Assembly (NCBI GenBank): GCA_958009055.1
Contig: OY253651.1
Span: 434,001 to 498,000, forward strand
From: Choricystis sp. odSpoLacu1
Lineage: Eukaryota > Chlorophyta > Trebouxiophyceae
Reading direction: 5' to 3'
Length of the DNA: 64,000 nucleotides
Position numbers and translations under genes: made by a program. Shown here one piece after another: positions 8,529-55,778 of this stretch. Numbering within the stretch: position 1 is the stretch's first letter; each line of letters starts with the position of its first letter. Under the pieces are notes generated by a model. That model saw only the letters and a list, made by a program, of their open reading frames with translations, was not told the DNA's origin and did not search any database.

Positions 8529-11500
8529 TCAAAACCCCACCCTCGCCACCGCGTCCCCCCTCGCCAAAAAGTAGCACGCGCACGTTCCTGTTCCCCCACC
8601 CCGCAGACCACCCAGCACAGCCGGCGGCCCTGGCGCGGGGCCGGAGGGAACATCGACGCGCGTCAACAGGCCGACCGCCACCAGCCGCGCCAACAGCGCG
8701 CGCGCAGACGGCCCACACAGTGCGCCCAACGCGCCCACCGCCCCGTCCTCGGGCAGGCCGGGCGATGCAGCCACGGCCGCCACCGCGCGCCGGGCCAGGG
8801 CGGTGAACAGGGAGGCGTCGGGGGCGCCGTCTGCGCGCGTCCAGGGGCTGCGGGTGGGCGCCGCCGCCGGCGTTGCCACCGTGCGCGCGCGCTTGCGTGG
8901 CGGCGGCCCTGCCGGCGTGGGCGGCGAGGGGGGCACTTCCACCGGCGTCAGCACGAGGCCGCCGTCCCACGGGGCGGGCGCGTCGGCGGCGGCAGGGGCG
9001 GCTGCTGCGGCACCGACGGCACCCAGCGCGAGCGAGGCAGGGGCAACACACAGAGACCCGTCCACCAGCCCACCCGCCGCCACCGCCAGCGCACCCAGAG
9101 GCACAAGGGCGGAGGGAGCTGAGCTCAGACCACCATCCGCAGCCGTCAGCACCGCCAGCGGGCCGCACAGGGGGGCAGGGAGGCGCGGCGGCGCGCGCGT
9201 CGCAGCAGCACGCAGCGCGGACGCGACCGCCGCGGCTTCATGCCACGCGTCGTCGGGCAGGGAGGGGGCCGTGGACAGGGCGCTCATGTAAGCGTCCGAC
9301 AGGCCGCGCCCGCCACGGCCGGCGTGGCCGGCGGCGGAGAGAGCGGACGCGGCTGCCGCGCCGGCACCTGCGCCGTGTGCCGCGTCCACCGCACGCACCG
9401 CGTCCGCCGTGGCGCGCGCCACATCGCGCAGGCCGCGCCGGGCAAAAAGTTCGGCACGCAGCGTCTCCAGGGCGGCGACGGCACGCGCGTCGCGCGGCGC
9501 GGCGGCGGCCGCGCGCGCGCGGCGCGCGCGGCGCGCGCCGGCGGCGGCGTGGGGGGGCGCCCCGCCGAGCTTCTCTCGGCCAGCACGGCCTCGCCTGCAT
9601 CGTCCTCGAAGCAGGCGGGTGCGGGCGCGGACGGCGCCAGGGGGACGGGGGAGGGAGGGGTGGAGGGTGCAGACAGAGGGCGGCGCGCTGGGGAAGCGGG
9701 CGGCGCGGCGGCGGCTGGCGCGGCAGCCGGCGCAGCCCCAGCCCCAACCCGGGGCGGGCGCAGGGGGGCCACATCCACAATGGAGTCGATCAACTCGGCG
9801 GCGCGCGGGGGCAGGGGCGGCGGGGAGGCGGACCGCGCCCCCCGCGCCGCGTTTTCTGCGCGCGCCGCGTCGAGCGCCGCGTCCAACGCCACCACCAGCC
9901 CCCCCGTCGCCCCGTCCCGGCGCAACCGGTCCAGCCGGCGCGCTCCCTGCCTCTCGTCCGCGGTGACGCCAGGCAGGCGGGCGGCGCGGCGCAGGGGGGG
10001 GGGGCCGTCCCGGCCGTGCGAGAGGACGTGCGCCGCGTACACGCGCAGCACGGCCCGGTCCTCCGCCTCGCTCCACCTCACTTTGCGGGTGGCGGGAGGC
10101 GCAGGCGTGGTGGTGGTGATGGTGGTGACAGCAGCAGCAGGAGGAGGAGGAGGGGGAGACGGCGCGGGAGGGGAGGGGGGCGAGGGGGGGGGCGCGGGCG
10201 CCGCAGCGCGCGCCGGCGCGCGCGCCGGCGTCGGCGCGCCCCACTCCTCGCTCCTCACCCCACCCCGCCACGACCCACGCGCCGCCAGTTCAGGCACGCG
10301 CGCCGCCAGCGGGGATGCCGCCACTGCGGACGGCGGGGCGACCGAGTAGCGGCGGAGGGCGCGCCAGACAGCGGCGAGAGCGTCTGCGTCGACCGCGAGC
10401 GGGGGCGCTCCAGAGCGGGTGCCACCCCCTCCCCCCCGCACCACGTCGAACACCGTCTCCTCCAGCATGGAGGCGCCGTCCACCACGTTATCCGGGTCTC
10501 TGTCGTCGCCGGCGTCGCCGGCTGCCGCGATGTCGGCGGTGGGGGCGACGATGCGGGGGCGGGGGACGACGGTGCAGAGCGGGCGCGGCGGCGGCCGCCC
10601 GCGGCAGCCGCCCCCGCTGCTCTCGGGCAGGTGCATCCTCACCAGCCCCAGGCGGCGCAGCAGCTGGACAGCCGCATCCAGCCGCCTCTCGGACGCGGCA
10701 TCGCGGGCGGCGGAGGCGGCGGGGAGGGGGGCGGCGCCGAGGGGGAGCGAGTCGGGGGCGCCACACCGCCGCAGGGCGGCCCCCACATCGCCCTTGCACC
10801 CGACCGCCGCCCGCAGCACGGCCAGCGGCATGCAATCCAGGGCGGAGGACACCGAGAACGCGACGCCGCCGACGGCGGGGGCGTCGGGCGGGGCGCGGGT
10901 CGCGCCGCCGCCGCGGCCGCCACCACCACGCGCCGCGTGGTCACACAACCACCCGTGCAGCCGGGCGGCGCGGGCCAGGCAGCCGCGCGCGTAGCCGTTG
11001 GCCAGCATGGTGCGCAGCTCGGCTGCGACTTTGTCGCGTGGGGAGGGGGTGGGGAGGGCGGGGGGGAGCGGCGCGTCCGCGTCGGCGCCGGCGGGCCGCG
11101 CGCCGGCCGCGCTGCTCACACCAGGCCCTGAGCGCACAACAGCAACGCGCTCCACCGCGCTCCCACCGCCCGGGGCGGCTGCTGCTGCAGCCGCGGCAGT
11201 CGCCGCACGGGCGGCCTGGGCGCGGCGCAGCTCGCCCCGAAACCCGAAGAACGCGGCAGCCACGGCCCCACGCTGCACGTCGGGCGGGACGCGCGCGCGG
11301 TCACCCACGCCCAGTCCCGCCGTCGCGGCCGGCGCCACCACCAGGCCCGCCGACCGGGCGGCTCCGGCGGCCGCCCCACCCGCGGTGGAGGCGGCGCCGT
11401 AGGGCATGGTGAGCTGGACGAGGCCGATGATGCCGCGAGCGACCCCCGCAGCGATAATCCGGTCGAGCGTCCTGCGATCCGGCCTCGCACACACCGCCCC

Positions 11501-13406
11501 TCCCTCCGCCTCCGACAGCAGCCGCGCCAACCGAGCGCGCAGGATGAAGCCGTCCCGAGAGACGGCGGCGGCCAGCAGGCGCAGGCGGGCTTCTTGTTGG
11601 GGGCCAAGGCGGTCGGACCGAGCGAGAGTCGCCGTCCCGCCCGCCGCGGGCGCGCGGGGGGGGGCGTCCACCGCGAACGCGGCGTCCGCCAGGACGTCGT
11701 CCAGTTCGGCTTCTTCCGTGGGGTCCAGCACGGGGGCGGGGGGGGGAGGGGGGAGCGCGATGTCGGGGAGGAGGGAGGACGGGTCGGCCGAGGCGGGGGC
11801 GGGTGGCGCTGCCCAAGCCGCGCCCACGCCGCCGCCACCCCCACGCGGCGCGGGCGTCGCAGGCCACGGTGGCGACGGCCCCGCCCCCGCAGCCTGGGGC
11901 GATGGCTCTCCCACTCCCAGTGGCGCCAGCCCCACGGGCGACGCGCCGCCCGCGGCCGCAGCCACCGCGGCCAGAAACCCGCCCTGCGGCCGCGCGGGCG
12001 GCGCGGCTGCGCGCGCGGCGGCAAGCGCAGCCTCCGGCAGCGACCAGAACCGCATGACTGCTTTGCCCAGTTGGCGGGAGGATTCGGTGGCGCCGACCGC
12101 GTCGCGGGCGGCTTCGAGGCGCGACTTGGCGCGGTGGGTGCCAAACGCGCGGGCGAGGGCAGCGACGGGAACACCGCCCCGCCCGCCCTCCGCGAGCAGC
12201 CGCCCCAACTGAGCGTCCAGCCCTTGTTCCGCTGCCAGCGCAAAGGCGGCGGCAGCGTCCGCGCCTGGGTCGGTGGGGGGGTCGTCGGTGGCGGCGGCGG
12301 CGGCGCGGGCTTTGGGGTCGGCGGCAGCCGCGAGCGCGTCGCCACCGTCCCACGGCGCAGCAGCCACCAGGGCGCCCCGTTCAGCGCCCCGGCCGACTCC
12401 GAAGCCGTCGTCGTCGTCATCGCCTCCACCCAGGCGCACGGTGACGATGCGGGCGTAGCCAGCAGTGACGAGCAGGGTGCGCAGGCGGCGCCAGGCGCGG
12501 TTGCCAGCTTGACCCGGTGGGAGGCCCAGCATGCGTTTCAAGTCGGCATCTGGCGTGGCAGCGGGCGCAATCGCGGCCAGGCGGGCGCACACGGTGGCCA
12601 CGGAGGCAGCGTCGTCGCGCACGCCGTCCGGGGTGGAGGCGCCTCCCTCTCTCAAGACGGCAGCTGGCCCCAAGCGCGGCGCGTAGCGCGGCAGGTGCAG
12701 CCTCGCGGTCGATTGAGCGGGGCGCCCCCTCGCCGCCGCCAGCAACACTTTGGTGGCGGTCACCAGGCCGCGGGCGGCCAGGTGGGTGATGACAAAGTGA
12801 AAGTTGCGGGGGTCTGCGCCGCGCGCGCGAGCGAGGTCGGGGCGCAGCACGCCCTCCCCCCTCGCCCGGGCCACCACCTCCAACGCATCCAGCTGCGCGG
12901 CAGACGGGGCGTGGGTGCACAGGTCGTCGTCGGACAGGCCAACAACGGCGCGCCAGAGGGGGAGGGAGGGGGTGAGGCGCAGTGGGAGGGGGGGGGGGGG
13001 TCGCCAGCGCGAGAGAGAGGGGTGTCTCCCCCTCCACCACCACATCGCCTGCCGCGATGGGGCCGGCGGTCAGGGCGGCGCCCAGGTCGGCCAGGGTGGG
13101 GGGGTCGAGGTGGGTGTAGCCGGAGGTGGGGAGGCGGGCAGTGAGGCGGGTGAGGAGGGTGGGGAGGGTGCAGCCTGTGGGTTTGTGCGTGTGTGTTTTG
13201 TGAGTGGACAACCCCCCATATGTTGCGTGTGTCCGTGCCACATGTGTGGCCGCTGGCTGGGCGGTGGCGCGGGGAGACGTGGGGGGCGGCATGTCGAATT
13301 TACGCGCCGCATGCGGGCCACCGACGTCGGGGAGCCGCCGCTCACTTGTCCTCCCTTCCAGCGCCAACTCTTCTGCCGCCACCACGGCGAGGTCGGCTGC
13401 CGACAT
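8529..13406 (-). CDS. TFIIIC largest subunit (B-block binding, GTF3C1/TFC3-like), frame broken twice
   Basis: RNA polymerase III general factor that binds the B block of tRNA promoters. Exon 1 is 13406-13346; exon 2 runs 13174-8529. About 1567 aa if two frame breaks are bridged. It starts MSAADLAVVAAEELALEG, then CTLPTLLTRLTARLP. The B-block winged helix is visible at QLDALEVVARARGEG and FHFVITHLAARGLV. A SANT-like block lies at RKVRWSEAEDRAVLRVY. The C-terminus reads ARALLARLVAVGLLTRVDV and CACYFLARGDA. The frame shifts at a 13-base C run (12988-13000), where dropping one base joins the frames, and again in a CG-alternating tract between about 9505 and 9590, where dropping two bases (or adding one) does so. 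Good family similarity on both sides of each break argues for a living gene with repeat-length errors. Confidence 0.8.
12988..13000. repeat. 13-bp G/C homopolymer breaking the TFIIIC frame
   Basis: Thirteen G on the plus strand, C on the coding strand. The upstream frame (ending GDVVVEGETPLSLALAT) must lose one base to join the downstream frame (LRLTPSLPLWRAVVGLS). No GT-AG intron can replace the shift, since no AG follows before the downstream domain. Confidence 0.85.
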
Positions 13407-13722
13407 GGTGTGGACGTGTTGAGGCGGCCCCAAGTGTGGGGCAGAGTGTTTTTGGCCTCGGAAATAAAAAAAAAAAAGAGGGAGCAAGGACGGCGAAAGG
13501 GAGTGAGGGAGTGACGGAGGTCAAAACTCTCGACGTTTTTTTGTTTCAAGTCGCTAGAAAACACGCGCCTCCCTCGCCAGTGGTTGCACACAAAAGTAAA
13601 AGAAAAAACACGGAAATGACCCCACACGAGGAATGAGAATGAAAGGAAAAACAGAGATCGACGGGAGAAAGGGAGGGGGTGTGCGTGGCGCACCCCACCA
13701 CTTCACGTTGCTCCTCTCCTTG
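13407..13722. other. Spacer between TFIIIC subunit and polyprenyl synthase genes
   Basis: 316 bp holding the presumed promoter of the TFIIIC gene and the 3' UTR of the synthase gene. It is much less GC-rich than coding DNA, with A11 (near 13467) and several short A or T runs. No gene or RNA feature recognised. Confidence 0.45.
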
Positions 13723-22727: not shown

Positions 22728-24972
22728 TCACACGTTGACCATCGCGTCGCACCGCAGGTCGCCCCCCGCCGCCGCGTCGGCCCACGCTTGCGCCGCCCCC
22801 CCCACCCGCGTCGTCTCCGGCGCCACGATGGCCTCCACCTGGGCGATGGGCGAGTGGTTCGGGTCCAGGCGGGAGGACCAGCCCTCCAGGACGAGGGTGG
22901 TGACCAGCACGGCAGACACGCGCGCGGGGAGCACCACCCCGTGCGTGCGCACGAGCTCGAGAACCCCTGCCAACGCTTTGGCGCCGTCAGTGGGGGGGGC
23001 GCCCGGGGCACGGGCAGCCTCCCGGTCGGCGGCCAGGGCGTCAAAGTAGGTCGCCATGTCCCTGCGAAAGGCGGCCGCGTCGCGGCACGACTGGGCGGGC
23101 GCCGCAAACTGCAGCGCGCGCGCGGCCACCGTGTCGCCGTCGTTGCGCGCAAACGCGGCAAACAGGTCGCACATGATCCCTTTGTCTGCCTCGGACAGGG
23201 AGGTCGTCATGCCGACATCCAGCAGGACGAGGGAGGGGCGCAGCCAGCCGCGCGGCGGGTGGACGCCGGCGGCGGCCAGGGCGCGGGCGAGCGCGCCCGC
23301 GGGGCCGCGCTTTGGGGGGTCCAGGCGGACGAGGATGTTACCGGGGTGCTGTGAGTGAGGGGGGGGGGGGGAGGGGCGGTGAGGGAGAGCGACGCAGAGG
23401 CGAGGGGGAGCCAACCCTCTCCCCAACCCTCCCACCCACACGTCTCACCAAGTCGGCGTGCACAAAGTTGTCCACCAGCAGCATGTGCAGCACAGCGTCC
23501 GACCCCAGCCTGGCGAGAGCGGTGCCGTAGCGTCCGCCAGGGCCGGCCGACACGTGCTCCGTGATCGCGCCCCCACTCTCGAACGTCTCCACCAGCACCG
23601 CCGGCGACACGAGCGGGTACACGGGTTGAGGAAACCGCACGCCATCCCTCTCCCTGAAGTTGTAGCAGAAGCGCCACAGGGAGCGGGCTTCGTGCTCAAA
23701 GTCGACTTGTTCGCGCAGGGGGAGTTCAAACTGGGCGAGCGTCTCTGCAAACCGCGCGTCGGCCAACGACGGCAGCACGACGGTGGCCGCCCGCGCGGCC
23801 GCCATCATGATGGCAAAGTCGCGCGCGATGGCGGCTTCCACGCCCGGGTGGCGCACCTTGACGGCGACGATGGTGCCCGGGGGCAGCCGCGCGCGGCGCG
23901 CGCCCGCGTCGGAGAGCCTCGCGCGGTACACCTGCCCAATGCTGCCCGACGCGACGGGTTTGTCGGGGAACCCGTCGAACAGGTCGTCCAGGGATGCATC
24001 GAACGCGGACGCGACAGCGGCCGCCGTCACAGAGCGTGGGTGGGCGGGCGCGGCCGCGTGCAGGCGTTCCAGTTCGGAGCACAGGTCGCGCGGAAACAGG
24101 TCGTGCCGCGTCGCCGCCCACTGGCCATACTTGATGAAGGCGGGGCCCGCCCGCTCCAGGGTGGAGCGCAGGGAGGCGATCCAGGTGGACCGGTCGGGGT
24201 GGCCTGCGTCGTGGGACAGGCAGCGGCGCGCGGAGAGGGCGAGCGGGGCGAAGACGGCGGCCAGCCACGCGGCACGCACCGCCACCTGCAGTGCTGCCAC
24301 GACGACCACCACCACCGCCGCCACGCGGGCCACTGCGCGCGCCACGGGGCCGGGGGGCGGGGGAGAGCGCACGGTGGCGGGGGGGGGGGAGGCGGGGGCG
24401 GGCAGGGGCGGAGGGTCGGCCGCTATCGCGCGCGCGGCCAGCGACGGCAGCGCCCGCAGCACGACGCCGCCCGCGGGCGTCAAGCCGAGCGCGTCCAGGA
24501 TGGCGATGCGGGCGCGGGGGCCGGGGCGGGCGGTCCACTCGGCGGGCAGCCAGCGCGCGCCGGGGCGCGGGGCCCAGGCTGTGCGTGGGGAGGGCGAGAG
24601 AAGGGTGGGGAGGGCGGGACAGGTGAGGAGCGACGCACGCTGCCCACACACACGCGCCTCCACGTGCCTCCCTCGCTCTCTCTCTCTCTCTCCCTCACCT
24701 TCGGGCGCGTTGAGCCTGGACTTGACCCACGCAGGCACCGCACGTGGCCGCCCGCCCGTCGCCGCGGCGGAGCTGCCGCCGCCGAGAGCCCACTGCGTCA
24801 GCGAGTCCAGGGCCCCCCTCGCCACGCCGGGTGGCAGGGAGGGGGGCGGTTTGCCCGTTCGTCGTGCTGACGCGTAGGCCCGGGTGGTGGCGTGGGGGGG
24901 CAGGTGGGTGAGCGAGGTGGCCACGCGGCGGCGGCGCGCGGTCGCCCACGCCGCCGCACTGGAGCGCAGCAT
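22728..24972 (-). CDS. ABC1/ADCK-family (UbiB) atypical kinase, ADCK2-like
   Basis: Organellar kinase-like protein of the coenzyme Q/UbiB family. Three exons: 24972-24699, 24578-23449 and 23348-22728 (674 aa). The N-terminus (MLRSSAAAWATARRRRVATS) resembles a mitochondrial presequence. A hydrophobic segment (RVAAVVVVVVAALQVAVRAA) is a likely membrane helix. Family motifs: the KxGQ variant AFIKYGQWAATRHDLFP, the Ala-rich loop ASGSIGQVYRARL, VAVKVRHPGVE, HADLHPGN, which the second intron splits cleanly, and LDVGMT replacing DFG. An extended Pro/Ala linker precedes the kinase core. ADCK2 is the closest family I recall, because of the long N-terminus and the helix. Confidence 0.87.
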
Positions 24973-25172
24973 TGGGGAGTCGGTCGGCGAGAGGTCGGTC
25001 CGCGAGAGGTGTGTGTGGGGCCCTCCCGTCCCTCGCGGCCGGCAGCAGGGGGGGCAGGAGGCGCGCGTGTGGAGCGCGAAATGCAGTTGAATGTGGGTGC
25101 TGTTTTTCGCTTCTTTCTCTCGTGCAAAAAACGCACACCTCTTCTGGCTCTTAACACACCCTCCCCCACCAA

Positions 25173-26278
25173 TCACTCCTTCACACTCGTCGGCAGCGAC
25201 GCCGACTCCGCCCTCCGCAGCGCGGCCGCCACGCGCACCGGCAGCCGCGCGCGCAGGGCGGGCGGCATCGCGGCCGCCGCCACCCGGTCAACGCCGCCCG
25301 CCGCCAGGGCGGCGACGCCCGCCAGCGTGACTGCCCACGCCGCGACGCGGGCGGGCAGGGCGGCGGGGGAGGGGGCGAAGGGTTCGCCCAGGGCGGCCAC
25401 GCCCAGGGCTGCTCCAGACAGCATGGACGACACGGCGGCCGCGGTGCAGACGCCGACGGAGGCGCCCGTTTTGAGGGCGGCCGTCTGGATGGCCATGCCA
25501 AAGCCCGACAAGAGGCTGGAGGCGGCGACACCTGCGCAAACCATGGCCGGCGCCCCTGCACCCAACGCAAACCCGGCCCGGCACGCGGTGGCGCCCAGCC
25601 CAAACACGATGCCCGCCCGCGCGCCTTGGGCGGTGGGGGAGGCGGGTGGCGGCGGTTTGGAGGGGGTGCGCGGGCGCAGGCCGCGCCGCACACGCGACGC
25701 GCCCAGGCGGGCGCGCAGAGAGGGGCCCAGCAGCACGGCCAGCGAGGCGAGCGCCAGCACAGCACACGCACGCCCACTGGAGGGTGGAGGCGGGGCGGGC
25801 GGTGATGTGGCGCCGAGGAGGCCAGCCCCGGCTGTCGCGACGGCAGCGGCCGCCCACTCGCCCCGGGACAGGCGTTCGTTGAGGAAGACGTGGGCCAGGA
25901 CGGCTAAGACGACCAGGCCGATGCCGGACACGGGCTGGACGAGGGAGACTGGGGGGTGTGGATGGTGTGTGGTGGGGAGGGAGGGTTGGCGTCGGCATCG
26001 CGCGGTGTTTTTTTTCGTGTTTCGTCGTCCCCTCCCGCCCTCCTCTCACCTGGCGCGACCGCGTACGCGCGTATTTGCAGCACGGCACCAACCACGTCCA
26101 GCGCCACTCCCGACGCCCAGGCCCGGTCGCGCGCAAAGGCGGCGAGAGAGTGGCGCGAAAAGCGGGGCAGACGTCGTGCCGCGCTCTTTTGCAGGGCCTT
26201 GCCCACGGCTGAGACGCAGGCCGCGGCGACCGTGAGGAAGACCGCAGGCCAAACATCCGCCGCCGGGGAGGCGTCCAT
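25173..26278 (-). CDS. NIPA-type magnesium transporter (NIPA8/9-like)
   Basis: Multi-pass membrane protein of the DMT superfamily, NIPA (DUF803) branch. Two exons, 26278-26050 and 25948-25173 (334 aa). The first helices appear in VWPAVFLTVAAACVSAVG, then LDVVGAVLQIRAYAVAP, VSLVQPVSGIGLVVL and LAHVFLNERLSRGEWAAA, the pairing seen in plant NIPA9-type proteins. Later helices are Ala/Gly-rich (VCAGVAASSLLSGFGMAIQT, VSSMLSGAALGV). About 8-9 helices can be counted. The Mg role is family inference; substrate residues cannot be judged here. Confidence 0.7.
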
Positions 26279-26495: not shown

Positions 26496-28223
26496 TCATG
26501 AGGTCGCGAGCAGCCAGCACTTCGCACACGGGGGGCGCGCCGCCCCCCCCCGCGCACGCCGCCCCCCCCCGCCGCGCGCGAGCGACCTGCGCGCCTCACT
26601 CACCAGCGCCTCAATCGCGCGCTGGGGCGCGTCCACGCCGATGGCACCATCCGAGTCGTCTGAATCAGACGACCAGGACACGCCGCGGGCACGGCGCCCG
26701 CCGCCGCGGGGCGAGGCGGAGGGGCCGACGTCGTACCGCCCGGAGAAGTGGGTCAACACCAGCCGGCGAGCGCCAACCGCCCCCGCAAAGGCACCCGCCG
26801 CAGCCGCGGTCGAGTGTTGGGCCATGGCGGCTTTGGCGGCCATGGGGGCGGCGAACGTGGCTTCGTGGGAGAGGAGGTCGCAGCCCGCGGCGGCGCGCGC
26901 GATGGCGGCAGAGGAGGCGGTGTCCCCCAGGATGACCACGTTGCGCCCGCCCGAGGCCTCAGACTCCCTCAATGAATACCCCCAGCACGGGACACGATGT
27001 TGGAGTTGAGCGGCGACCGCGGTCAGGCCGCCCGTGCCCAGGGGGAGGGTCCACGTCAACCCGACGACGGGCGTCGGCCCGCGCCGCCCGCGGCGGTGGT
27101 GGTCGCCGCCCCCGCGGGCTGCAGCCGCCGCCTCCTGCCGCGCAGCCGCCAACGCATCCCGCGAGGCGGGAGTGTCGTCGGGGGCGAGGGTGGCGAGGGC
27201 GACTGAACCGGGAACGCCGCGCGCGCGCGCGCGGGGCGCACGCCCGCGCCAGGATCAGCAGTCAACTCGACGACGAGCACGGAGGTGGGAAAAGGGGTGG
27301 AGGACAGTCTGAGTCCAGCCAGCACCAAGGCGTGCAGGCCGGGCGGGCCTGCGACCAGGAGGCGGGGCAGCGGGTCGACACCCGCGGACGCGGCAGCCGC
27401 CGCGCGCGCGGCGGTCACGGCAGCCACAACCGAGTGCACGCCAAAGCAGTGGTCGCCGTGCAGGTGGGTGATCAGGAGGGCGCCCACGTGGGCCAGGGGC
27501 ACGCCCGCGGACGCGAGCTGGACGGCGGTCCCTTCACCCGCGTCGACCAACACGGTCGCGCGCGCGCACCGCACCGCCACGCTGGACACATTGCGCCCGG
27601 GCGTGGGGGCGCCTGACGACGTGCCCAGCCAGGTGACGGCGAGGCCTGTGCCAGCGGCGGCTGGGTCGGGGGGGGTGGAGGGGGCGGCAGGGGCGGGAGG
27701 CGGAGGTGCCTGCGTCGCTGCAGCCTGTGCCGCCACGCCGCGCGTCGTCGGTTGGCCTCCCTCCCCCACCAACCTGGCCACCAGGTCGGCTTTCAGACCA
27801 GCGGTGGGCAGGCCTGCTGCGGCGGCGAGAGCACGCAGGTCGGCGACACGCATGCGTGCGAGCCCCGCGCGCGTCGTGGCGGGGGGTGGGGTGGAGGGCG
27901 CGACTGCCGCTTGCACCGGGGCAGTGGTGGAGGCACAGGCGTGTGACGAGAGCCTGTGTGGATAGAGAGGGAGGGAGGGGGAGGCGCGTGGTGGGAGGAG
28001 GCGGTGTGGTGGAGCGTGGTTGCGTTGTTGGCGGCTCTTCTCTCGGCGTCCCCAGCCACCCTTCGTCCGCCGCGCATTTCCCTCCCACACGCCCACACAC
28101 CACCACACGACACTCTCACCTGTCACTGTGCGCGGCCGCGGCCGTGACGGTGCGGCGGGCCCTCCGCACCGCCGCGCACAGCGCCCGCATGCGGAGCGCG
28201 GGCCGCGGGGCCGGGGGGCGCAT
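26496..28223 (-). CDS. Short-form RNase Z (tRNase Z) with N-terminal SAP domain; one frame break
   Basis: Endonuclease that trims tRNA 3' trailers. Exon 1, 28223-28120, encodes a basic leader (MRPPAPRPALRMRALCAAVR), likely an organelle transit peptide; exon 2 is 27953-26496, about 519 aa if one break is bridged. A SAP nucleic-acid-binding motif (ARMRVADLRALAAAAGLP) comes before the metallo-beta-lactamase domain. Metal motifs: HLHGDHCFG, GDTASS, HEAT and LTHFSGRY; NVSSVAVR and GYSLRESEASGGRN are also family blocks. The frame shifts in a CG-dinucleotide tract (27219-27236): dropping one dinucleotide joins VVELTADPGAGV to VPGSVALATLAPDD. No intron of plausible length explains it. Confidence 0.83.
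27219..27236. repeat. CG-dinucleotide tract breaking the RNase Z frame
   Basis: Alternating C and G inside the RNase Z coding region. The two reading frames that carry RNase Z motifs differ by two bases across it, equal to one repeat unit. Confidence 0.75.
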
Positions 28224-29199: not shown

Positions 29200-29977
29200 C
29201 TACTCCACTGGTCTCGCCGCCGCCCCACCTTTGCCATAGTTCTTTTTGCCCCAGGAGAAGGGGACGTAACGGTGTTTGAGCATGTGGCGAATCTGGCGCT
29301 TCATCGTCACAAAAAAGAGCGCAAAAAAGTAGGCCACCAGAATGGGCCAGAAGACGGGGACGTCGAGCAACGGGAAAAAGGTGGCGGCAAAGCCCAGTGC
29401 AAAGGAGCGGGTAGCTGCCCACCAAAATTTGAACTCGGGCAGGCGGCGCACAAACGGGCGAAACTCGTCGGCGGCCGCGGAGGGCAAGGTGGGGCCGTCG
29501 AGGTCGGGGTCGACCTGTGTGTGGTGTATGTGGTGTTGGCAAGGTGTGTGTTGGTTGGTTGGTCGCTCTGTTTTGCCGCGCACGCGGGGTGGGAGCCAAG
29601 GTTCTCTCTCTCGGGTGTCCCCTGGCGCGCCCGCAATCGAAAAACAAAACAGCCGCGCGGCTTTCTCCCTCCATTCCCTCTCTCCCTCCCTCCCCCACCA
29701 CACACACAACACTCCCACGCACACACTCACCTGCGGCGTCAGGAAGCCGAGCAACAGGTTGAGGTTGTAGATGGCGAGCGCGTACGAAACGATGTGGAAC
29801 CCTTTCAAACTGTACACCCGACCCCCGTACGCCAGCACGCCCAGGGCCAGGGCGCCCCATCGGGGGGCGATGTGGGGGGCGACGGTGTCCAGGGCGCGGC
29901 GCAGACGGGACCGCGCAGACGCGAGCGCGTCGGCGAGGGGGCCGGGGGGGGGGGGCGTCGACGTAGGACTCTGCCAT
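29200..29977 (-). CDS. RER1: RER1 (ER retrieval receptor); frame broken at C12
   Basis: Golgi-to-ER retrieval receptor with four membrane spans. Two exons, 29977-29731 and 29514-29200, 186 aa once one base is removed from a C12 run. Family blocks: YGGRVYSLKGFHIVSYALAI, YNLNLLLGFLTPQ, DEFRPFVRRLPEFKFWW and FVTMKRQIRHMLKHRYVPFS. The only in-context ATG (29977) reads MAESYVDAPPP, which is out of frame with RER1 by one base across 29944-29955. With C11, MAESYVDAPPP runs straight into GPLADALASARSRL. No other ATG is available in the RER1 frame nearby. Confidence 0.88.
29944..29955. repeat. G12/C12 homopolymer breaking the RER1 frame at codon 8
   Basis: Twelve G on the plus strand inside the RER1 first exon. 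Eleven would restore a continuous protein from the ATG at 29977. Confidence 0.85.
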
Positions 29978-33498: not shown

Positions 33499-36234
33499 AT
33501 GCCTTGCGCGAAAGGTCCACACACGCGGCGACACGCTCACGCAATGCGCCGCTCGGCGTGGCCACATGCGGGGCGCCCGTTGCCCCCCGCCCGCGCCGTC
33601 TCCCCCCGCCCACGGCCACAGGTGGCACGAGCTGCTACTTCTGATGGCTCCACCGTAGCCACGGGCCCAAACGCTCACGCCCTCAGCACCCGGGTGGGGG
33701 GCGAGGACGGTCCAACGCTGGCTGCCACAGTCGACGCGTTTGTCCAGCTGGCCAAGGTGAGAGAGGGAGAGAAGGAGTGCTTGAGGAAGAGTCAGAGCAA
33801 GCGAACAATGGAAAGTAAACCAAAAAAACCTGCCCTTTTTACCCTCAACAGTCCGTGCGCCGCCACACGACCCCCTCCGGCCGGGCCGCCCTCGCCGCCT
33901 CCCCCGCCGCCGCCTCCCTGTCGTCCACGCTGGTGGCCGCCGCCGACTCGTTGACACCCGCCGCGGGGGCCGCCCTGGCCCGCGCGCACGGGGCGGTGGG
34001 GCACGCATCGCCAGCGCTGGTGGCCGTGTTGGCGGCACGCGCCCCCGCGGCTGCCGCGACGGGCGGTGCTGACGGCGCGGCCTGGGTGGCGGCCCTGGTG
34101 GCGTCCCCCCGCGTCGGCACCGCGGCCGCCCGGGCGGCCCTGCTGGCGCAAGCAGCGCCGTCGCTCGCGGGCGGCGGCGCGCACGCGCTGCCGCTGCGCA
34201 CGCTGTGCGACGTGGCCGCTGCCACAGCCGCCATCCTGGCGGCTGGCCAGAGTGGAGGACTCGCAGACGCCACCTCGGACGACGCCGCGTCCGAGAGCGA
34301 CGACGGCCTGTGGGCGTGGGGGGATGCGGCTGCCGCGGCCGCGACCGCGGGGCGGTCGCCGACAGCGCGCGCGGCAGAGGCGGGCGCACCGCCGCCGCCC
34401 GCCCTCCCCGCCCCCGCCCACCTGGCTGCAGCAGTCTCCCTCTTCGACACGCTGGCCACCTCGGCGGCGGGGCGGGAGCATGAGCTGGACGGTGCGTCGG
34501 TGGCCCGCCTGGCGCGCGCGCTGGTGGAGAGCGGCGCGCTGCGCGCGGCGCGCCGCGCGCGCGGCGCGCCCGTCCCCGTCACCGCCCTCCTGGACGCCCT
34601 CTGCCGCCGCGTGCAGGCGGGCGTGCTGGATGGGCGGGCCGCCACCCCGCCCGACGTGTGCAACACGGCGTGGGCGCTGGGGCGGGCAGCGCGCACGCTG
34701 CCGCACGACGCAGCCGCGCCCGCGCTCTCTGCTCTGGCCGCCCTGGCCCGCCCCCTGGAAACCGCCGCCCCGTCCGCCGACGCGGCCGCCGTGGCGGCCG
34801 CCGCCTGGGGCCTGGCCGCCAACTCGGGCGCGGTCGCGGGCGCGTGTGGCGCCGCCTCGGGCGACCGCGCGGCGGCGGCGCTCGACGCGCTTGCCAGCCG
34901 AGCGGCCGCGCTGGCCGCGCGCGGCGGCGCAGACCCGCGCTGGGCCGCCACCACGCTCTGGGCCCTGGCCCGCGCCCGGCACCGCCACCGGCCCGCGTTT
35001 GCAGAGGTGGCGGCCTGCGTGGATGCAGCGTCGCTGCGTCCACGCGATGGCGCCACGCTCGCCCTGGCTGCCGCGCACGCCGGGTGCTGGGACGCGCCTG
35101 CCGTCGCCCGCCTGCTGGACGGCATCGGGGTTGCGACCTTGGATGCTTTGTCCCGCAACGAGTGCCCCCCCCGCGCCGCCGCCAACGTGTGTTATGCTCT
35201 CGCAGCGGCGGGGCGGCTGCCGCCACGGTTGCAAGCGGCGGCGGCCGCCGCCGCGGCGCGGGCGCCGACGCCCCCCCCCCCCCGCCGAGCTGGGCCAACT
35301 GCACGTGGCAGCAGTGGTTCTGCGCGCAGAGGGAGGGATGGCTCCTCCCGGCACCCCCCCTCCCCCCCACACCGTCGGCGATGCGACCGACTTTTTACGC
35401 TCTCTCTTTGACGCTGGCCGCGTCACCACCGCCGCGGCCGCCGCCTGGGCGGCGGGCGGCCCCCTGGGCCCCACCCGCGTCACCGCGTCCCACAAACAGT
35501 TGTTGACGTGCCTGCGGGAGGCGCACGGGTGGGAGGAGGTGGAGCCGGAGCACAGGGCGGCAGGCCTGGCCGCCGTCGACGTCGCCCTCCCCTCCGCCCG
35601 CGTGGCTGTCGAGCTGGACGGTCCCTCCCACTTTTTCGCAAATGCGCCCTCCGTCCCTGTCGGCGGCACCGCCTTCAAGCGGCGGTTGTTGCGTGCCCTT
35701 GGGTGGCAGCTCGTGTCGGTGCCACACTTTCACTGGGCTCAACTGGCCACGGGGGCCGCCCGGGCCGCGTATGTGGCACTGGCACTCGCAGGCTCGCTCG
35801 CCGCCCTGCCCGACGAGGATGTGCGGGCCGCGCTGGCGGGGCTGGGGCCGCCCCGCGCGCGCGCGGGCGCGCTGGCGGTCGAAATCGCTCGCATGCTGGC
35901 CGAATACTCAGCCAGCGATGCGGGTGGCCACGATCGAGGCGACCAAGTGGCCCGCTTGGTGGCCGAGCTGGAGGGCGAGGAGGAGGCGGTGGCGGAGGGT
36001 GGGGAGGGGGTGGAAGCGGAGCAAAGTGTCGTCGCCACTTCGCCACCACCATCACCACCCCCACCACCGCCGCCCGACCCAAACGCCATCGCCACGCGTG
36101 TCATTCGCCTGGCCGCGGTGCGCGGGCGACAGGGCAGGCTGACCGCGTCCGCCGCGCTGGCTGCGGGGCGGCGCGCGGCGCAGGGGAAGCGGGACGATGG
36201 CGACGACGACGACGACGAGAGCGCGGGCGAGTGA
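33499..36234 (+). CDS. RAP-domain organellar RNA-binding protein; frame broken at C13
   Basis: Likely plastid or mitochondrial RNA-processing factor. Exon 1 is 33499-33756 (Arg/Pro-rich transit-like start); exon 2 is 33852-36234; about 879 aa once one base is removed from a C13 run. The middle is a helical-repeat region (VCNTAWALGRAARTL, AAAWGLAANSGAVAG, WAATTLWALARARHRH, NVCYALAAAGRLPP), of the FASTK/OPR-RAP style. The C-terminal RAP domain reads RVAVELDGPSHFF, GTAFKRRLLRALGWQLVSV and PHFHW. The tail is acidic and Pro-rich. The two frames meet at 35271-35283. Confidence 0.8.
35271..35283. repeat. C13 homopolymer breaking the RAP-protein frame
   Basis: Thirteen C on the coding strand. Removing one base joins the repeat region (ARAPTPPPP) to the frame that carries AELGQLHVAAVVL and the RAP domain. 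Confidence 0.85.
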
Positions 36235-39029: not shown

Positions 39030-39565
39030 ATGCCGCCCACACGCGCCGCCTGCCGCGCCGCCGCAGCCGCCGTGCTGGATGGTGCGTGCTTGAAGGAAGG
39101 CTGACCACCGCGCGTGTGTGTATTCTTTGTGTGTGCGCGTCTGTTCGTCTTCCCCCCCCCCCCACCCACCCTCCCTCTCCCGCCCACACTCAGGCACCCA
39201 CCCTGACTGGGCCGCCGCCTTCACCGCGGCCGGCGTGGACCCCCCCCCCGCCACCACGCTGGCCCTGGAGCTGCCGTCTGGGCTGTCTCTGGAGGCGGCG
39301 GCGGCGGCTTTCGGCCGCATGGCGGCGTGCGCGGCCGCGGCCGCGGCCGCCGCCTCCCGCTCGGACGACGCCCTCGCCCGCGCCGCCTTTGGCGCGCTGG
39401 GGGGTGGCCCCTCTGCCGACGTCTCCGTGGAAGCTCTGCGTGCGGCCGCGGACGCGGTGGGGTTGGGGGGGGGGGGCGCTCGCGGCTCGCCTGCGCCGCG
39501 CGCGCGTGGGGGCAGCCAGCATGACGCTGTCCCAGGTGAAGGCGGCGCTGGCGGCCAGTGTGTGA
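39030..39565 (+). CDS. Small Ala-rich protein of unknown function; frame broken at G12
   Basis: Two exons, 39030-39081 and 39194-39565, about 140 aa if one base is removed from a G12 run (39465-39476). It starts MPPTRAACRAAAAAVLDG, then HPDWAAAFTAAGVDPPP, ALELPSGLSLEAAAAAF and, after the break, ALAARLRRARVGAASMTLSQ. No family recognised. The N-terminus could be a targeting peptide. It shares a 122-bp divergent spacer with RPL4. The clean phase-1 intron supports it as a real gene. Confidence 0.55.
39465..39476. repeat. G12 homopolymer breaking the small unknown gene
   Basis: Twelve G on the coding strand. Eleven would extend the protein to the natural-looking end KAALAASV and a stop at 39565. 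Without it the frame runs on into 3' sequence. Confidence 0.75.
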
Positions 39566-45471: not shown

Positions 45472-46342
45472 ATGGCACCCGACGCCCGCCGGAAAATCCC
45501 TGGGCGGCTGGCCCCACGTCAAGCACTGCACGTACAACGCCTTACCCCCATGCGGGCGTCGGGCGCCCCCCCCCCCCTCCCCCGTGGACGCGGCCGCGGC
45601 AACCGCCGTCGCTCGCTTTGTCCGCACCGGTGACGTCGTCGGCGTCGGCCCCGGCGCCCTGGCCGCCCCCCTCCTCGCAGCCCTGGCCAACCGAACCGAC
45701 GATGTGCGCATCCTGGCGGCAGGGGACGCGCCCGCGGCGGAGGCAGCGCTGGCGGGCGTGCCTCAAGCTCCCGCCGACTCGCCCGTCTCCATAGCCTTCA
45801 TCACCGCCGACGAACTGGATGGCGACGCCACCCCCACCGGCTTTGCCTACATCACGTGCCGCGGCGACGGCGTGGAGACGGCGGCCCAGCCTCAGCTGGA
45901 CCGAGTGGCTGGCGTGAGCGCGCGCGCGGCGCGCGGCGTCGTGGCCTTGCTCCCCCACCCGGAACGCCTGGTCACGAGGCTCGGGGGCGACGTCCCCGTG
46001 CTGGTGGACCTGGAGTCATTCGAAGATGTGGCCGACGAGATTGACGACATCTTCATCGGCGACGCCGAAGTGTGGCGCCGGCCGGCGCGGCCGGACGACA
46101 CGACGGTCGGCCCGCGTGGCGGCCCGTCCCCCCACGCCGACCCTGTGGCCTCTGCCACTCTCCTCGATATCCGCTTTGGGGACGCCCCCCTCGTCAAGGA
46201 TGGCGAAAAAGTGGCCTACACCGACATCCTGGACGCGGTGGCGGGAGTGCCGGGGGTGCGGGCGGTGGGGCTGGGGTTTGCTGGTGCTGCCGTCGTCGCG
46301 GGCGGCGCGGCGGGCGGCGCGCCGGCCGTGCTGGAAACGTGA
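45472..46342 (+). CDS. Ribose-5-phosphate isomerase-like protein (RPI4-like); frame broken at C11
   Basis: RpiA/NagB-fold protein resembling the divergent plastid RPI4 of plants. Single exon, about 289 aa after removing one base from a C11 run (45566-45576). Both candidate ATGs (45472 and 45550) lie upstream of the run in the same frame. The domain reads AVARFVRTGDVVGVGPGALA, SIAFITADELDGD, LVTRLGGDVPVLVDLESFED and VAGVPGVRAVGLGF. RpiA hallmarks are altered: DGADEID is TADELDGD, the GGGG loop is TCRGDG and the DESK lysine is replaced (HPER). It is therefore probably not an active isomerase of the usual kind. Confidence 0.7.
45566..45576. repeat. C11 homopolymer breaking the RPI-like frame
   Basis: Eleven C on the coding strand, between MRASGAPPP and SPVDAAAATAVARFV. 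It is the shortest coding run that breaks a frame in this window. Confidence 0.85.
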
Positions 46343-47888: not shown

Positions 47889-48056
47889 GGTGTGAGGCCG
47901 GGCGGTTTTGTGGGGCGTGTGGACAGAGGCAGCGCAAAACGAATGCGCACGCCTTTTGTTGTCTAGTAGAGTGACGAGCGCATTTCGCTCGAACACTTTT
48001 TCTTTCTGCGGCAAACACATTTGCACACAGCCCCGCGTGTGCAAGAGCGCCACACG

Positions 48057-50082: not shown

Positions 50083-51835
50083 ATGGCCCGCCTCCCCACC
50101 ATCTACACGCAGTGCACCCCGGGGCAAAGCGACGGCGGCATCGTGTCACTGACGCTGCGCCCGGGCGACCGCACCGCCCCGATTGAGCTGACCGTGGAGC
50201 TGGACCAGGGCGAAGGTGAGAGGCGTGGGGTCGCGTGGGCGGGAGGCGCGTAAACAATTGTCGGGTGACGCAGCACATTGGCTGGAGGGTGCACGGAAAG
50301 AAATCGCCACCACCCTGCCGCGCCCCCCGCGCGCGCCGTCGCCAACGTGTCGTGACACTGTGTGTCGGCATTGGCGGGGGGGGGGGGGGGCGCGCCAACC
50401 GCCACAGAGACGACGGGAGAACGCGCGAGTCGCACGTCCCGCCCAGTCGCGAGTGACGGGCCACGAACCTACACCCGACAACCCTCTTCCCTCCCTCTCC
50501 TCCACACACACAGACGCCACCCCACCCACCGTCGGCGTCACCATCACTCGCGACGCGGGCGCCACCCTGTTTTCCGAGACCGCGGACGGCACCCGCACCA
50601 CCCTGGCGTCCTCACACGCGGGCGGCTACGGCCCCGTCTGCCCGGGGGGCGCCGCCTTCTGGCTCTCCTACGACGCCGTGGGCGGCCTGCGCTACGGCCG
50701 GGGCTACATCGTGGAAGCCGCCGTGCTGGCCTCGTGCCGCGCCCCCCGGTGCGCGGTGGAAGCTGGCGGCCCTCTCTGCCGCGAGCCCGCGCCGCGCCGC
50801 GTGCGCGTGCGGGTGGGGGGCTTCTCCGCTCCCCCCGTCGCCGCCACGCCGCACGCGGCCCGGCTGGCGGCGCGCAAGGGGGGCGACCGCCCGCCCGCGG
50901 TGTGGTGTGGGAGGCTGCCGTTGGCGCACACGCCCTCCCCGCTGGCGCTGCCGCCGGGCGCGCCCGCGTCTCTGGCCGGCCTGGGCGACCCCGCCGCCCC
51001 CGTCCGCTTCGAGGAGCTGCCCCGCGCCTGCGCCCAGCTGGTGGCCGCCGTGTGTGCGCCAGGAGTGGGGCTGGAGTGGCCGGGCACGCCGCGCGGCGCC
51101 CTCGCGGCCGCCATCTCGCACTCCCTGCGCGGAGGCGCCCTCGCAGCCCGCCTGGCGGCCAAAGCGGCTGCTTCCGGCCTCAAGATTCCCTACCTTAGAG
51201 TGGCAGTCGCCGCCCCCCGGCGGTGTGCTCCCGGGGAGCCTTTTGTGCTGGAGCTGTGGCCCGCGGGGTGCGCCTCCCCCGTCCACTCGCACGGCGGCGC
51301 GTGCGGCGTCTTCCGCGTGCTGCACGGCACCTGCACCCTGCGCACCTTCAACGCGGCCCACGCGGACGGCCCCCCCGACGACAGGGGGCGCGTCCCGCAC
51401 TGTGAGGCGAGGGCGCTGCCGCTGGGCAGCGTGGGGTGGTTTGATGGGGGGCGCCACCAGACCCACCAGATTGTGTCGGCGGGTGGACCCCCGGGCACGT
51501 TTGCCGCCACGTTGCAAGCGTTCCGGTATGATGATGACGACAACGTGGCGTGCCCCTTCATGGAGGTGGAGGTGGCGGCGGACAGACCGCTCGATGCTGC
51601 TGGGGGCGACGCGGCCGCCACTGCCGCCCCCGCTCCGTCCTCCTCCTCCCCGCGCGACTTTGAGCCGGTGTCGGACTACACGTTTGCCGAGCTGGCGGAG
51701 CTGGTGCTGGCGGAGCACGCGGCCGCGGTGGCGGCCGTGGACGCGAGTGCCGCACCCACAGCACCCGCGCCCTCGACCAAGCGTGTGCGCGGCGAGTCGC
51801 CCGGCGACATGGAGAGGTTTGACTGGGCGATTTGA
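50083..51835 (+). CDS. Cysteine-dioxygenase-like cupin protein with N-terminal beta domain
   Basis: Two exons, 50083-50215 and 50514-51835 (484 aa). The C-terminal half holds a CDO-type cupin: PFVLELWPAGCASPVHSHGG with the His pair, ACGVFRVLHGTCTLRTFNAA, LGSVGWFDGGRHQTHQIVS with a third His, then FAATLQAFRYDDDDNVACPF. These match the three-His iron site of cysteine dioxygenases. The N-terminal ~120 residues (ATLFSETADGTRTTLASS, AAFWLSYDAVGGLRYGRGYI) form a separate beta-rich domain that resembles FA-type lectin-like modules; this is uncertain. The tail is Ala/Pro-rich. Substrate unknown. Confidence 0.6.
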
Positions 51836-51988
51836 GAGGAAAGATGGTTAATGTGGGGGTGGGGAGGGTGGGAGAAGACTGCTTTGTTTGCTCGCCGCGA
51901 AAAATAGTGTCCCATTTTTTTGATTATGTCAACCAACCCACACACAAGTGCTGCTACATAAAAAAAAAAAACATCGCCCTCCCTTTCA

Positions 51989-52515
51989 TCAAAACAGGTG
52001 CACCCAGTTGTGGGCCAGCGTCCAGAACAACACAAACGTCAGCAGCGCGGTCGACCCCGCCGCCTCCCCCGCCAGCAGGGAGGTGGCCGAGGGGGCGAAG
52101 GCCGAGGGGGCGCCCACCGCCTTGGCGTAGAGGACGGCAGCGGCCTGAGTGGGTAGGGTGAGTAGGGGTGGGTCGATAGGCCGAAGAAAAAAAAACGCAC
52201 CCGTTGGTGCCTCCTCCCCTCCCAACTCTCTCTTCGCACCGCTGCCTGGGCGACGCCATAGTACACAAAGCCGGACCAGCCTTCCACGCCCAGCACGCCG
52301 GCCACGAGGGCCGCGATGAGGGCGAACGAGACGGAGCTGTGTGAGATTGGGGGTGTGTTGTTTGCATCGGCTGTGATCCCTCTCCGCCACACGCGCCCCG
52401 CACCCCTCCCTCTCCTCTCTAACCACACTCACACATACTGGGCCACGCCCGCGTTGTGCTTGAGCGCGGTCACGCTGGCCACGTTCTTCAGCAGCGGCTG
52501 CGGCTGGGGCGGCAT
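51989..52515 (-). CDS. EMC6: ER membrane protein complex subunit 6 (EMC6)
   Basis: Small core subunit of the ER insertase for tail-anchored and multipass proteins. Three exons: 52515-52433, 52336-52240 and 52144-51989, 111 aa, the usual EMC6 length. It opens MPPQPQPLLKNVASVTALKH, then three hydrophobic segments: SVSFALIAALVAGVLGVEGW, GFVYYGVAQAAAAVLYAKAV and ALLTFVLFWTLAHNWVHLF. The last block matches the FVLFWTFAYDIVHIF end of plant EMC6. All splice phases close. The largest single reading frame covers only a third of the gene, so it is easy to miss. Confidence 0.88.
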
Positions 52516-52702
52516 GGCGAGCGAGGTGTGTGTGTGTATGTGTGTGTGTGTGTCAGTGCGTGTGGTCGCCCCGCCCAGTCAGCCCAGTGGAAGGGAGGAG
52601 AGAGCGATACAGAGAGAAGTTCTGCCTCGTACTGATCGAAGGTGGAAAAAAAGCAGGCAAGTTTTTTTTTTCGTTTTTTCGTTTTTCAACTCTCTAAAAA
52701 AA

Positions 52703-55700
52703 TCAGGCTTTCCTGGACACCTTGCCCTCCGTCAGCTCCACCACCGCATCCGCCGCAGGCACAACACCATCATCCCCCTCCGTCGACCGCCGCATCATAG
52801 CGGCACTGATGCGGGCCCGCACGCGGGGCACCAGTGTCCTGTGCCTCTCCGGTCCGCCGTCGCCGCGCCCGAGCGCGCGCGCGGCAGCCAGCCGGGCCAC
52901 ACTCACGCACAGGTAGGACAGGCATCCGCCCGACGTGATGGCCCCCAGCACGGGCACTACAGAGAGGCGGGCGTCCCCGATGAAGCGGGCGGTGGTGGCG
53001 GTCACAGCGAGGCCACTGGCCAGCGCTGTCGCAGCCACCACCACGTGCGTCGCGGCCCCGCGCACCAGGCCCGCCGTGCTCCCCGTCTCCAGCATGCGGT
53101 CCAGGGCGGTGACAGAGAAACATTCATAACGCCACACGTCGGCGCGTTCGCCCCGGGTCGCCAGTTTGAGGAGGTGTGTTTTGCGTCCAGACACTGGATC
53201 CACCGCCGGCTCCCCCGCGTCGTGGGCGGCAATGCCGGCCTGCACCGCGGCCGCGATGGCGGGTGTGCGAATGGGGAAGCGGGCTTTGAAGCAGAAGGCG
53301 ATGGAGGCGGAGAGGACGGGCAGGGCAACGAAAGCAGCGGCAATAAACCCACGCACGCGCGCGGACTGGGGCTGGGACACGCCGTCCACAGGCGGCGCAA
53401 ACCCCAGCAAGTTGATGGCGGCCAGGGGCAGGGCGGAGGCCGGGATGGCCAGGAATTTTGGGATGATCGTCGCAAACACACAGAACGAGGCTTCGCAGCG
53501 CGCGCCGTGCAAAAACTGGTCGTAATCGATGACGTCTGCCAGGATGGAGTGAGTCAGGAAGGCGCCGCCAATGGGGATGCCGTTGAGGGCCATGAGGGCG
53601 ACGGTGAGGTAGGGGCGGCCGCCTGGGGAAGGAGGGGAGGGTGAGTTTGTCTTGTGCCTCTCTTTCTCCTCACATCACGCCCACACACATCCATCCCATC
53701 CACATCACTCACGTAGCGGCACCAAAAACAGCAGGTTCAGCGTCGTCGCCGCCGCCGACACGACGAGCCACACCCTAAACTTGCCCCACTTTCGCGACGC
53801 GGCCAACCACAGCGGTGCAGCCGCCATCGCCACCAGCAGCAGGCACATGACGCCCCCGCCCAGGGTGGCGGTGGGGTCCAGGGCGCGGCCCGCGGCCACC
53901 GCGGCGGGGCCGTCCGACTCGACGACGTAGCGAACGAAAAAGGGGGCCATGGTCAAAAGGGAGGACAGCCCCAGCCCTTCCAACGCCCAGGCAGCCAGCA
54001 ACGGCCTGAACGCCCCGTTTTTGAAGGCGCGCATCATGGAGGGGACCAAGGGCACCCTCTCCACCGCGTCGGGGGGGAGGGGGCGCTCCCGCACGCGCGC
54101 CGCGGCGATCAGGGCAGCCAGAACGTAGTACACGCCAAACGAGGTTGAAATGGCGGCGTACGCGCCCCGCTGGGCGGCCAGGGCGGGCATGGCGTAGCGC
54201 GTGAAGGTGGCGCAGGGGGTGGTGGACGGGCAGGCGGACGCACCACCGACGTGGACCAAGGAGGCACACGCGGGCGCAGGTGGCGGCGCTTGCCCCGTGG
54301 CCGCCACCAGCGCCGCCGAACACGCCGCCGTCACGCGCCCGATGGCGGCTTCAAAGCGGGGGGGCGCGCCCGCCCACCCGGGGGCTGGGTCGGAGGGGGC
54401 GGGGGTGCCGACGGCTGCTGCGAAACAGAATGAGCCGGATCCACCCGAGCACGCCTGCGCGGTGACACACCCACCTGCCGCGTCCCTGGGGTCGGCATAC
54501 GAGGGCGGCACGAGGCGGTAGATGCCGTGTGCGTCCCGGTGGGCGCCGACGGCCAGCCCCACGCACTCGACGCCGACTCTCAAAGCGCCGCGCGAGCGGA
54601 GAGCGAACGCCGCCAGCGCGGGCAGGGCGGCCGCAGCCAGCATGCCAGCCTGGTTGAACAGTTTGGCGATGAAGAAGACGCGGGAGCGCTCGGTGTAGTC
54701 GTCGGTGAGCTCGGGGCCCAGGGCCTGTGAGAGAGGGAAGGGTGGGTTGGTAAAAAAAGTGATTGCTTCTTTTTGTTTCACCCACCACCCACAGCACACG
54801 CCATTCACAATCTCTCCCTCACCTCATAAGGCACGTTGCACCACGTGTCCGCCAGGTAGAAGAAGAAGTAGGTGCCCGCAAACCAGGCGACCACGTGCGC
54901 GACGCGCGGGTCGTCCGGGCTCAACCGCCCCGCCAGCGCGGGCGGCAGGATCGAATGAGGCGGCGAAAAAAGCATGGCAAACAGCGCGCCATACACGAGG
55001 CACCCGGACAGTTGGTAGGGGCGGCGCCGGCCGTAGCGGGTGCGCGTCCTGTCGGACAGCCACCCCATGAGGGGGTCGGTGATGACGTCCAGAGACCGGG
55101 AGGCGGCGGTGAAGAAGGTGAGGAAGGTGAGGGGGGCGCCCAGGGACACGTAAAAGTCGACGAGGTAGACGTTGACCTGTTGGTGTGGGTGTGGAGGGTG
55201 AGAGGGAAAGCAGAGAGAGAGACGCGCCATCATAGTTCGTTCTCTCTCTCTCTTTCCATCGCACCAAAAACGACAGGCTCGTCGTGGCCAGCGCGGGGGC
55301 GCCGTACGCCAGCTTGGTGAGCAGGGGCAGGCGGCCTGTGGGTGTGGTGGTGTGGAGTGTGTGAAAAGAAGGCCTTGTGCAAGCCATCACAATCGAGCCG
55401 ACGGTTGGCGCCCGTTTCACCCGATGCAAAGTCCCACTGCACGCAGTCAATTGCATCCAACCCGTGCCAGCAGGCGGGAGGCGGCGGCGGCGGGCTGGTT
55501 TCCAACGGCGAGGTACCTGCGCCGCAGGCGCGCGCATTGGCATGTCGCGCCGCATTGGCGTGCGTGTTCCTTCCTCCTCCACCCACGCACCAACATACGG
55601 CCGCCCCCCGCTGTCCTCCGTCTTCACGTGGCCAGGCGTCAGGGGGGCCACGTCGGCGGGGAGAGGCTCCCCAGTCGCGTCCAGGTAGTCCGCGAGCAGC

Positions 55701-55778
55701 ACCGTGGTCGACGCGTCGAGCGGGGCGCCCAGGGAGGGGCGGCGGGCTTGGGGGGGGGGGGGGGAGGGGGTCGGTCAT
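52703..55778 (-). CDS. GPH-type (Na/melibiose-like) MFS transporter; frame broken at C15
   Basis: Multi-pass sugar:cation symporter-like membrane protein. Five exons: 55778-55591, 55335-55265, 55176-54823, 54724-53713 and 53622-52703; about 847 aa once one base is removed from a C15 run right after the start. Motifs: LPLLTKLAYGAPALATTSLS, FFTAASRSLDVITDPLMGWL and SDRTRTRYGRRRPYQLSG (the family RxGRR loop), NVPYEALGPELTDDYTERSR, GAFRPLLAAWALEGLGLSSL and SILADVIDYDQF. A 100-residue Ala/Pro/Cys-rich loop follows the sixth helix. It carries the most introns of any gene here. Substrate cannot be read from sequence. Confidence 0.82.
55750..55764. repeat. G15/C15 homopolymer breaking the transporter frame near the start
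   Basis: Fifteen G on the plus strand. With fourteen, the ATG at 55778 reads MTDPLPPPP straight into QARRPSLGAPLDASTTVLL, in frame with the transporter. Confidence 0.85.

What the first reader, a model, noticed from the sequence alone, without database searches (positions are those of the whole stretch)
9505..55764. All coding C/G runs of 11 or more break the frame by the same amount, as if one unit too long
Six genes break at homopolymers: TFIIIC (C13, 12988), RER1 (C12, 29944), RAP protein (C13, 35271), small unknown gene (G12, 39465), RPI-like (C11, 45566) and GPH transporter (C15, 55750). In every case removing exactly one base joins two frames that both carry family motifs. Two dinucleotide cases (RNase Z at 27219 and TFIIIC near 9505-9540) fit removal of one CG unit. 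Coding runs of 9 (5892, and one near 10190) keep frame. Both sense-C and sense-G runs are affected. The shared sign points to systematic length overcalling in the assembly, or less likely to a tolerated +1 recoding at C/G runs. Only the change modulo 3 is known.
Basis: partly seen in the sequence, partly recalled or inferred. Interest (0 to 1): 0.8.

Follow-up and report, generated by a model that had tools for sequence, protein, structure and literature searches.

The report
Assembly repeats one unit too long
Many genes in this small green alga's genome record look broken because long stretches of one repeated letter (C or G), or of CG pairs, are written one unit too long; this is most likely a sequencing or assembly error and not a new way of reading genes.

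The parts
35271..35283 (+). C13 in the RAP-domain gene; frame changes by +1
   Evidence: Model +1 0.95, 0.92; RAP domain downstream; homologues P0001, P0003, P0004, P0005 continue across the site
39465..39476 (+). G12 in a small unknown gene; frame changes by +1
   Evidence: Model +1 0.91, 0.90
27218..27233 (-). CG repeat of 16 bases in RNase Z; frame changes by +2
   Evidence: Model +2 0.81; Lactamase_B_2 positions 2-65 before (25.2 bits, below its cut-off of 27) and 67-200 after (36.1 bits); P0006 and P0008 intact with one CG unit fewer
12988..13000 (-). C13 (sense) in the TFIIIC B-block gene; +1 suggested
   Evidence: Flanking coding segments differ by +1 with gaps of 35 and 42 bases; B-block_TFIIIC downstream; run itself not called
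29944..29955 (-). C12 (sense) near the start of RER1; +1 suggested by a start codon only
   Evidence: Rer1 profile 5-68 downstream; upstream frame from an ATG
45566..45577 (+).
   Evidence: no Pfam match downstream
55750..55764 (-). C15 (sense) near the start of the transporter gene; +1 suggested by a start codon only
   Evidence: the 56-residue first piece has no Pfam match
9567..9577 (-). +2 frame change in the TFIIIC gene, site uncertain
   Evidence: CG repeat at 9510-9521 itself leans to in frame, 0.78
9994..10004 (-). C11 (sense) that keeps frame: counter-example
   Evidence: Inside the stop-free frame 9284-13069; in frame 1.0
24379..24389 (-). C11 (sense) that keeps frame: counter-example
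   Evidence: Inside the stop-free frame 23338-25287; in frame 0.999

Best explanation
The printed record has systematic length errors at long GC-only repeats: homopolymers of C or G, and CG dinucleotide repeats, are often written one repeat unit too long, and more often the longer the repeat. Inside genes this changes the frame by +1 (mononucleotide) or +2 (dinucleotide). The organism's own genes are most likely intact and read normally. Shown: the shared sign, the dependence on the repeat unit, the rise with length, intact orthologues, and a one-base difference between near-identical array copies. Inferred: that the extra unit arose in sequencing, consensus calling or polishing and is absent from the living genome. 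Which platform or program did it is not known.
For: 16 against 0 for +1 over +2 at C/G runs of 8 or more, p = 3e-5; equal detection of both signs in simulation; 0 of 266 called control stretches shifted; fraction shifted among called runs 2/43 at length 8, 3/9 at 11, 2/3 at 12, 5/5 at 13; CG repeats of 14 or more +2 in 4 of 5; RNase Z relatives P0006 and P0008 have exactly one CG unit fewer; P0086 has four prolines at the C13 site and fits 10 bases at the G11 site; array copy with C12 broken where three C11 copies are in frame; long-read assembly corrections lie over 99% in homopolymers and dinucleotide repeats (PMC13174521, passages).
Against: No raw reads. At the third ZRANB3-like site (G13) the relative has one residue more than one base fewer would give, which fits two bases more or a natural difference. 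19 of 35 frame changes in a general scan lie at no C/G run of 8 or CG repeat of 10; 10 of these are +1 and 9 are +2. The error runs opposite to the deletion bias described for MinION (PMC12007338, passages), and I found no paper describing the same bias. One 14-base C run and one 16-base CG repeat are in frame. A second public record of the same organism has the same breaks (P0002, P0007, P0087), possibly not independent.
Confidence: 0.91

Rival explanations
1. Tolerated +1 ribosomal frameshifting: Pro and Gly tRNAs slip by +1 at CCC-C and GGG-G, so genes with one extra base are still read correctly.
For: The sign at C/G runs fits, and both Pro (C) and Gly (G) runs are hit. +1 slippage of tRNA-Pro without m1G37, and by SufB2, is known in bacteria (starts of abstracts of PMC7577736 and PMC7803779).
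Against: CG repeats shift by +2. In-frame C11, C12 and C14 runs exist. In 11 of 11 nuclear tRNA loci examined ARAGORN found a tRNA gene; the 8 drawn have 7-base anticodon loops, including two Gly; no Pro tRNA was recovered, so this is weak.
Confidence: 0.02
2. Transcriptional slippage: RNA polymerase drops one repeat unit at long GC repeats, and genes are tuned to one unit more in DNA.
For: Explains both +1 at C/G and +2 at CG repeats and the rise with length.
Against: In-frame long runs in the same genome; relatives have the shorter length at three of four sites; no RNA data were available; such a complete effect at C/G runs is not known to me.
Confidence: 0.03
3. True insertions in the sequenced culture (real slippage mutations or pseudogenes).
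For: Array copies differ in length at C runs and also by four substitutions, and one broken copy among four could be tolerated.
Against: Conserved genes are hit, one of them three times; single-unit losses, which slippage should also give, are absent (0 of 16).
Confidence: 0.04

Closest known systems
Homopolymer and dinucleotide-repeat length errors of long-read assemblies (PMC13174521 and PMC12007338, passages)
   Same: Errors concentrate in the two repeat classes seen here and break genes.
   Different: MinION errors at homopolymers are described mainly as deletions; here the called errors are one unit too long, at GC-only repeats.
+1 frameshift suppression at C/G runs (SufB2, m1G37-deficient tRNA-Pro; starts of abstracts PMC7803779, PMC7577736; SufA and SufD recalled)
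   Same: +1 sign at runs of C or G.
   Different: CG repeats shift by +2; long in-frame runs coexist.
Medakamo hakoo genome (PMC9871001, passages)
   Same: Tiny GC-rich trebouxiophyte alga with TTAGGG telomeres, assembled from long reads.
   Different: 15.8 Mb, 18 contigs, 72.7% GC, longest 1,473,234; here 14.59 Mb, 19 contigs, about 70% GC in the sampled parts, C1 1,515,297. Not the same assembly.

Membership tests
Long-read assembly length error | Frame breaks concentrate at long homopolymers and dinucleotide repeats | tested here: met
   Rise with length at C/G runs and CG repeats; but 19 of 35 changes in the general scan lie elsewhere, without sign bias
Long-read assembly length error | Change is a whole repeat unit, independent of coding | tested here: met
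   +1 for C/G, +2 for CG; in the array a non-coding-called C10/11 and C19/20 vary by one too
Long-read assembly length error | Raw or independent reads show another length | not testable with these tools
   No reads held; P0087 and others repeat the same breaks and may not be independent
+1 ribosomal frameshifting at C/G runs | +1 step whatever the repeat unit | tested here: not met
   CG repeats of 14 or more: +2 in 4 of 5, +1 in 0 of 5
+1 ribosomal frameshifting at C/G runs | Suppressor-type tRNA with enlarged anticodon loop | tested here: inconclusive
   8 drawn nuclear tRNAs have 7-base loops, two Gly; no Pro found
Transcriptional slippage | RNA lengths differ from DNA lengths | not testable with these tools
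   No RNA reads
Pseudogenes or true insertions | Both gains and losses of a unit | tested here: not met
   16 gains-type against 0 at C/G runs of 8 or more, with equal detection

The most novel reading that the evidence does not exclude
The printed lengths are true, and this alga drops exactly one repeat unit at long GC repeats when it makes mRNA (or its ribosomes skip it), so that its genes are written one unit too long and read correctly.
Probability: 0.05. Interest if true: 0.9.

Novelty: not a real feature. Interest (0 to 1): 0.15.

Why it matters
Extrapolated from about 284 kb, on the order of a thousand frame breaks in this 14.6 Mb record would be spurious (16 at C/G runs; 5 at CG repeats of 12 or more). 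Gene counts, pseudogene lists and any recoding claim from it would be misled. The one-sided error in both repeat classes is a handy diagnostic for GC-rich assemblies: tabulate the sign of frame changes by repeat unit.

Tried and rejected
Rejected: the rule '11 or more always breaks' (in-frame C11 twice in the window, C12 and C14 elsewhere). Rejected as the general cause: short introns at the runs; at the RNase Z repeat and at the C13 and G11 runs of the ZRANB3-like gene, profile halves or orthologue residues join without room for one. Rejected: detector bias towards +1; simulated +1 and -1 are found in 121 and 125 of 184 (array copies not dropped there), +2 and -2 at CG repeats in 142 and 147 of 193. 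Tried without use: tRNA search of the window (0), a tRNA-Pro pattern recalled from memory (0), literature for an insertion-biased platform, literature for the organism. A/T runs could not be tested: no A/T run above 7 was callable.

Full report
Setting. The window is G000:C3:434001-498000 of a 14,593,115-base, 19-contig genome; the window and the sampled parts have 69-70% GC. C18 and C19 look organellar by tRNA density; C19 is 91,072 bases and C1 begins with TTAGGG-type telomere. The nearest named RNase Z homologues are Coccomyxa, so a trebouxiophyte green alga is likely. The published Medakamo hakoo assembly differs in size, GC and contig lengths (passages).

Observation in the window. C11 at 9994 and C11 at 24379 are in frame inside stop-free frames of 1261 and 649 codons. 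C13 at 35271 and G12 at 39465 break by +1 in an unbiased model. C13 at 12988 is flanked by segments that differ by +1, but the run was not called. RER1 (29944), the 'RPI-like' frame (45566, really C12, no Pfam match) and the transporter (55750) rest on a start codon upstream, so they are consistent but weak. The other nine runs lie in gaps between coding segments and were not called. The RNase Z repeat breaks by +2; the TFIIIC change near 9570 is +2, but its site is uncertain.

Frame model. A periodic order-3 model with six coding states and one non-coding state was trained on 264 kb: the window and C1-C4:100001-150000. At each repeat the letters were made uninformative and +1 and +2 were given equal prior. 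C4:150001-170000 was added from then on, 284 kb in all. For the counts, copies 2-4 of a four-copy array were dropped, except the C12 run. Control: all 266 random stretches that could be called were in frame. Simulation on 184 in-frame runs of 7-11 (array copies included): +1 found in 121, -1 in 125; the rest uncertain apart from one -1 case called in frame.

Result for C/G runs (p>0.7; total, in frame, +1, +2). Length 6: 447, 240, 2, 0. 7: 174, 100, 0, 1. 8: 86, 41, 2, 0. 9: 40, 25, 3, 0. 10: 15, 5, 1, 0. 11: 15, 6, 3, 0. 12: 12, 1, 2, 0. 13: 10, 0, 5, 0. 14 or more: 23, 1, 0, 0. For 8 or more: 16 against 0, p = 3e-5; at p>0.8, 13 against 0; at p>0.9, 11 against 0. For 10 or more, sense C has 10 in frame and 4 at +1, sense G 3 and 7. 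106 of the 201 runs of 8 or more were not called.

Result for CG repeats (p>0.8). Of repeats of 14 or more, 4 of 5 are +2 (18, 17, 16 and 14 bases; 0.81 to 0.97) and one 16-base repeat is in frame (0.81). Of 20 repeats of 12-13, 9 are in frame, 1 is +2, none +1. Of 71 of 10-11, 55 are in frame and 1 is +1; of 201 of 8-9, 145 in frame, 1 at +1, 1 at +2. Simulated gain and loss of one unit are found about equally (142 and 147 of 193). So at long repeats the shift follows the unit. A ribosome that skips one base would give +1 at both kinds.

Relatives. P0006 (91% identical RNase Z, ENA contig of 211,342 bases) and P0008 (58%) are intact and have the residues expected from 14 bases instead of the printed 16 (letters). 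P0086 (88% identical, 1373 aa) reads through all three ZRANB3-like breaks. At C13 it has four prolines, that is 12 bases; at G11 its length fits 10 bases. At G13 it has one residue more than 12 bases would give, which would fit 15; the relative's stretch is not a pure glycine run, so this site does not decide. RAP homologues P0001, P0003, P0004 and P0005 continue across the C13 site with linkers of varied length. P0002, P0007 and P0087 are identical to this organism over the matched part and have the same breaks, on contigs of 1,010,850 and 1,322,324 bases, which are not the lengths of C3 (1,265,114) or C1 (1,515,297); whether they are independent is unknown.

Internal comparison. C4:118624-150067 holds four copies of a 7.86 kb unit. 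Copies 1 and 2 are identical. The four differ by four substitutions and three one-base length changes, all three at C runs (10/11, 11/12, 19/20); three other C/G runs of 10 or more, the A/T runs of 8-17 and the CG repeats keep their length. The coding C11 is in frame in three copies and printed C12, broken by +1, in the fourth. There 'broken' is directly one base longer than 'in frame', but a true mutation cannot be excluded.

Against the reading. 19 of 35 frame changes in a general scan lie at no C/G run of 8 or more or CG repeat of 10 or more; 10 are +1 and 9 are +2 (four of these nine are copies of one array site). They may be short introns, model noise or other errors. The direction of the error is the reverse of the deletion bias described for MinION (PMC12007338, passages). 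I found no paper with the same bias. PMC13174521 (passages) reports that over 99% of corrections to its long-read assemblies lie in homopolymers or dinucleotide repeats, which fits the two classes seen here.

Conclusion. One unit too long at long C/G and CG repeats, with a chance that grows with length, best explained as length error in the record (0.91). Ribosomal recoding (0.02), transcriptional slippage (0.03) and true insertions (0.04) remain possible until reads are examined.

Noticed in passing
G000:C4:118624-150067 (L026-L029): Four tandem copies of a 7.86 kb unit, two of them identical; differences are four substitutions and three one-base changes at C runs.
   Followed up: partly
about G000:C1:134600-138800 (L012): A ZRANB3-like helicase-HNH gene broken three times by +1 at G13, G11 and C13, while a C11/G11 run inside it keeps frame.
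   Followed up: yes
P0002, P0007, P0087: Public protein records identical to this organism with the same breaks, on contigs of lengths other than C1 and C3: another version of the assembly or another record of the same reads.
   Followed up: partly
L031 (C1:1-2000), C19: Human-type TTAGGG telomere repeat instead of the plant-type TTTAGGG (the contrast is recalled), and a 91,072-base plastid-like contig; similar in kind to Medakamo hakoo, but another assembly.
   Followed up: partly
C4:119048-119060 and its copies; C1:140490; C2:121939; C4:161127 and others: Frame changes in the general scan with no long repeat nearby; both signs equally common; short introns, model noise or other errors.
   Followed up: no
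window 23359-23371 and 39152-39163: G13 and C12 between coding segments whose frames differ by +1; could be introns, gene ends or further breaks.
   Followed up: no
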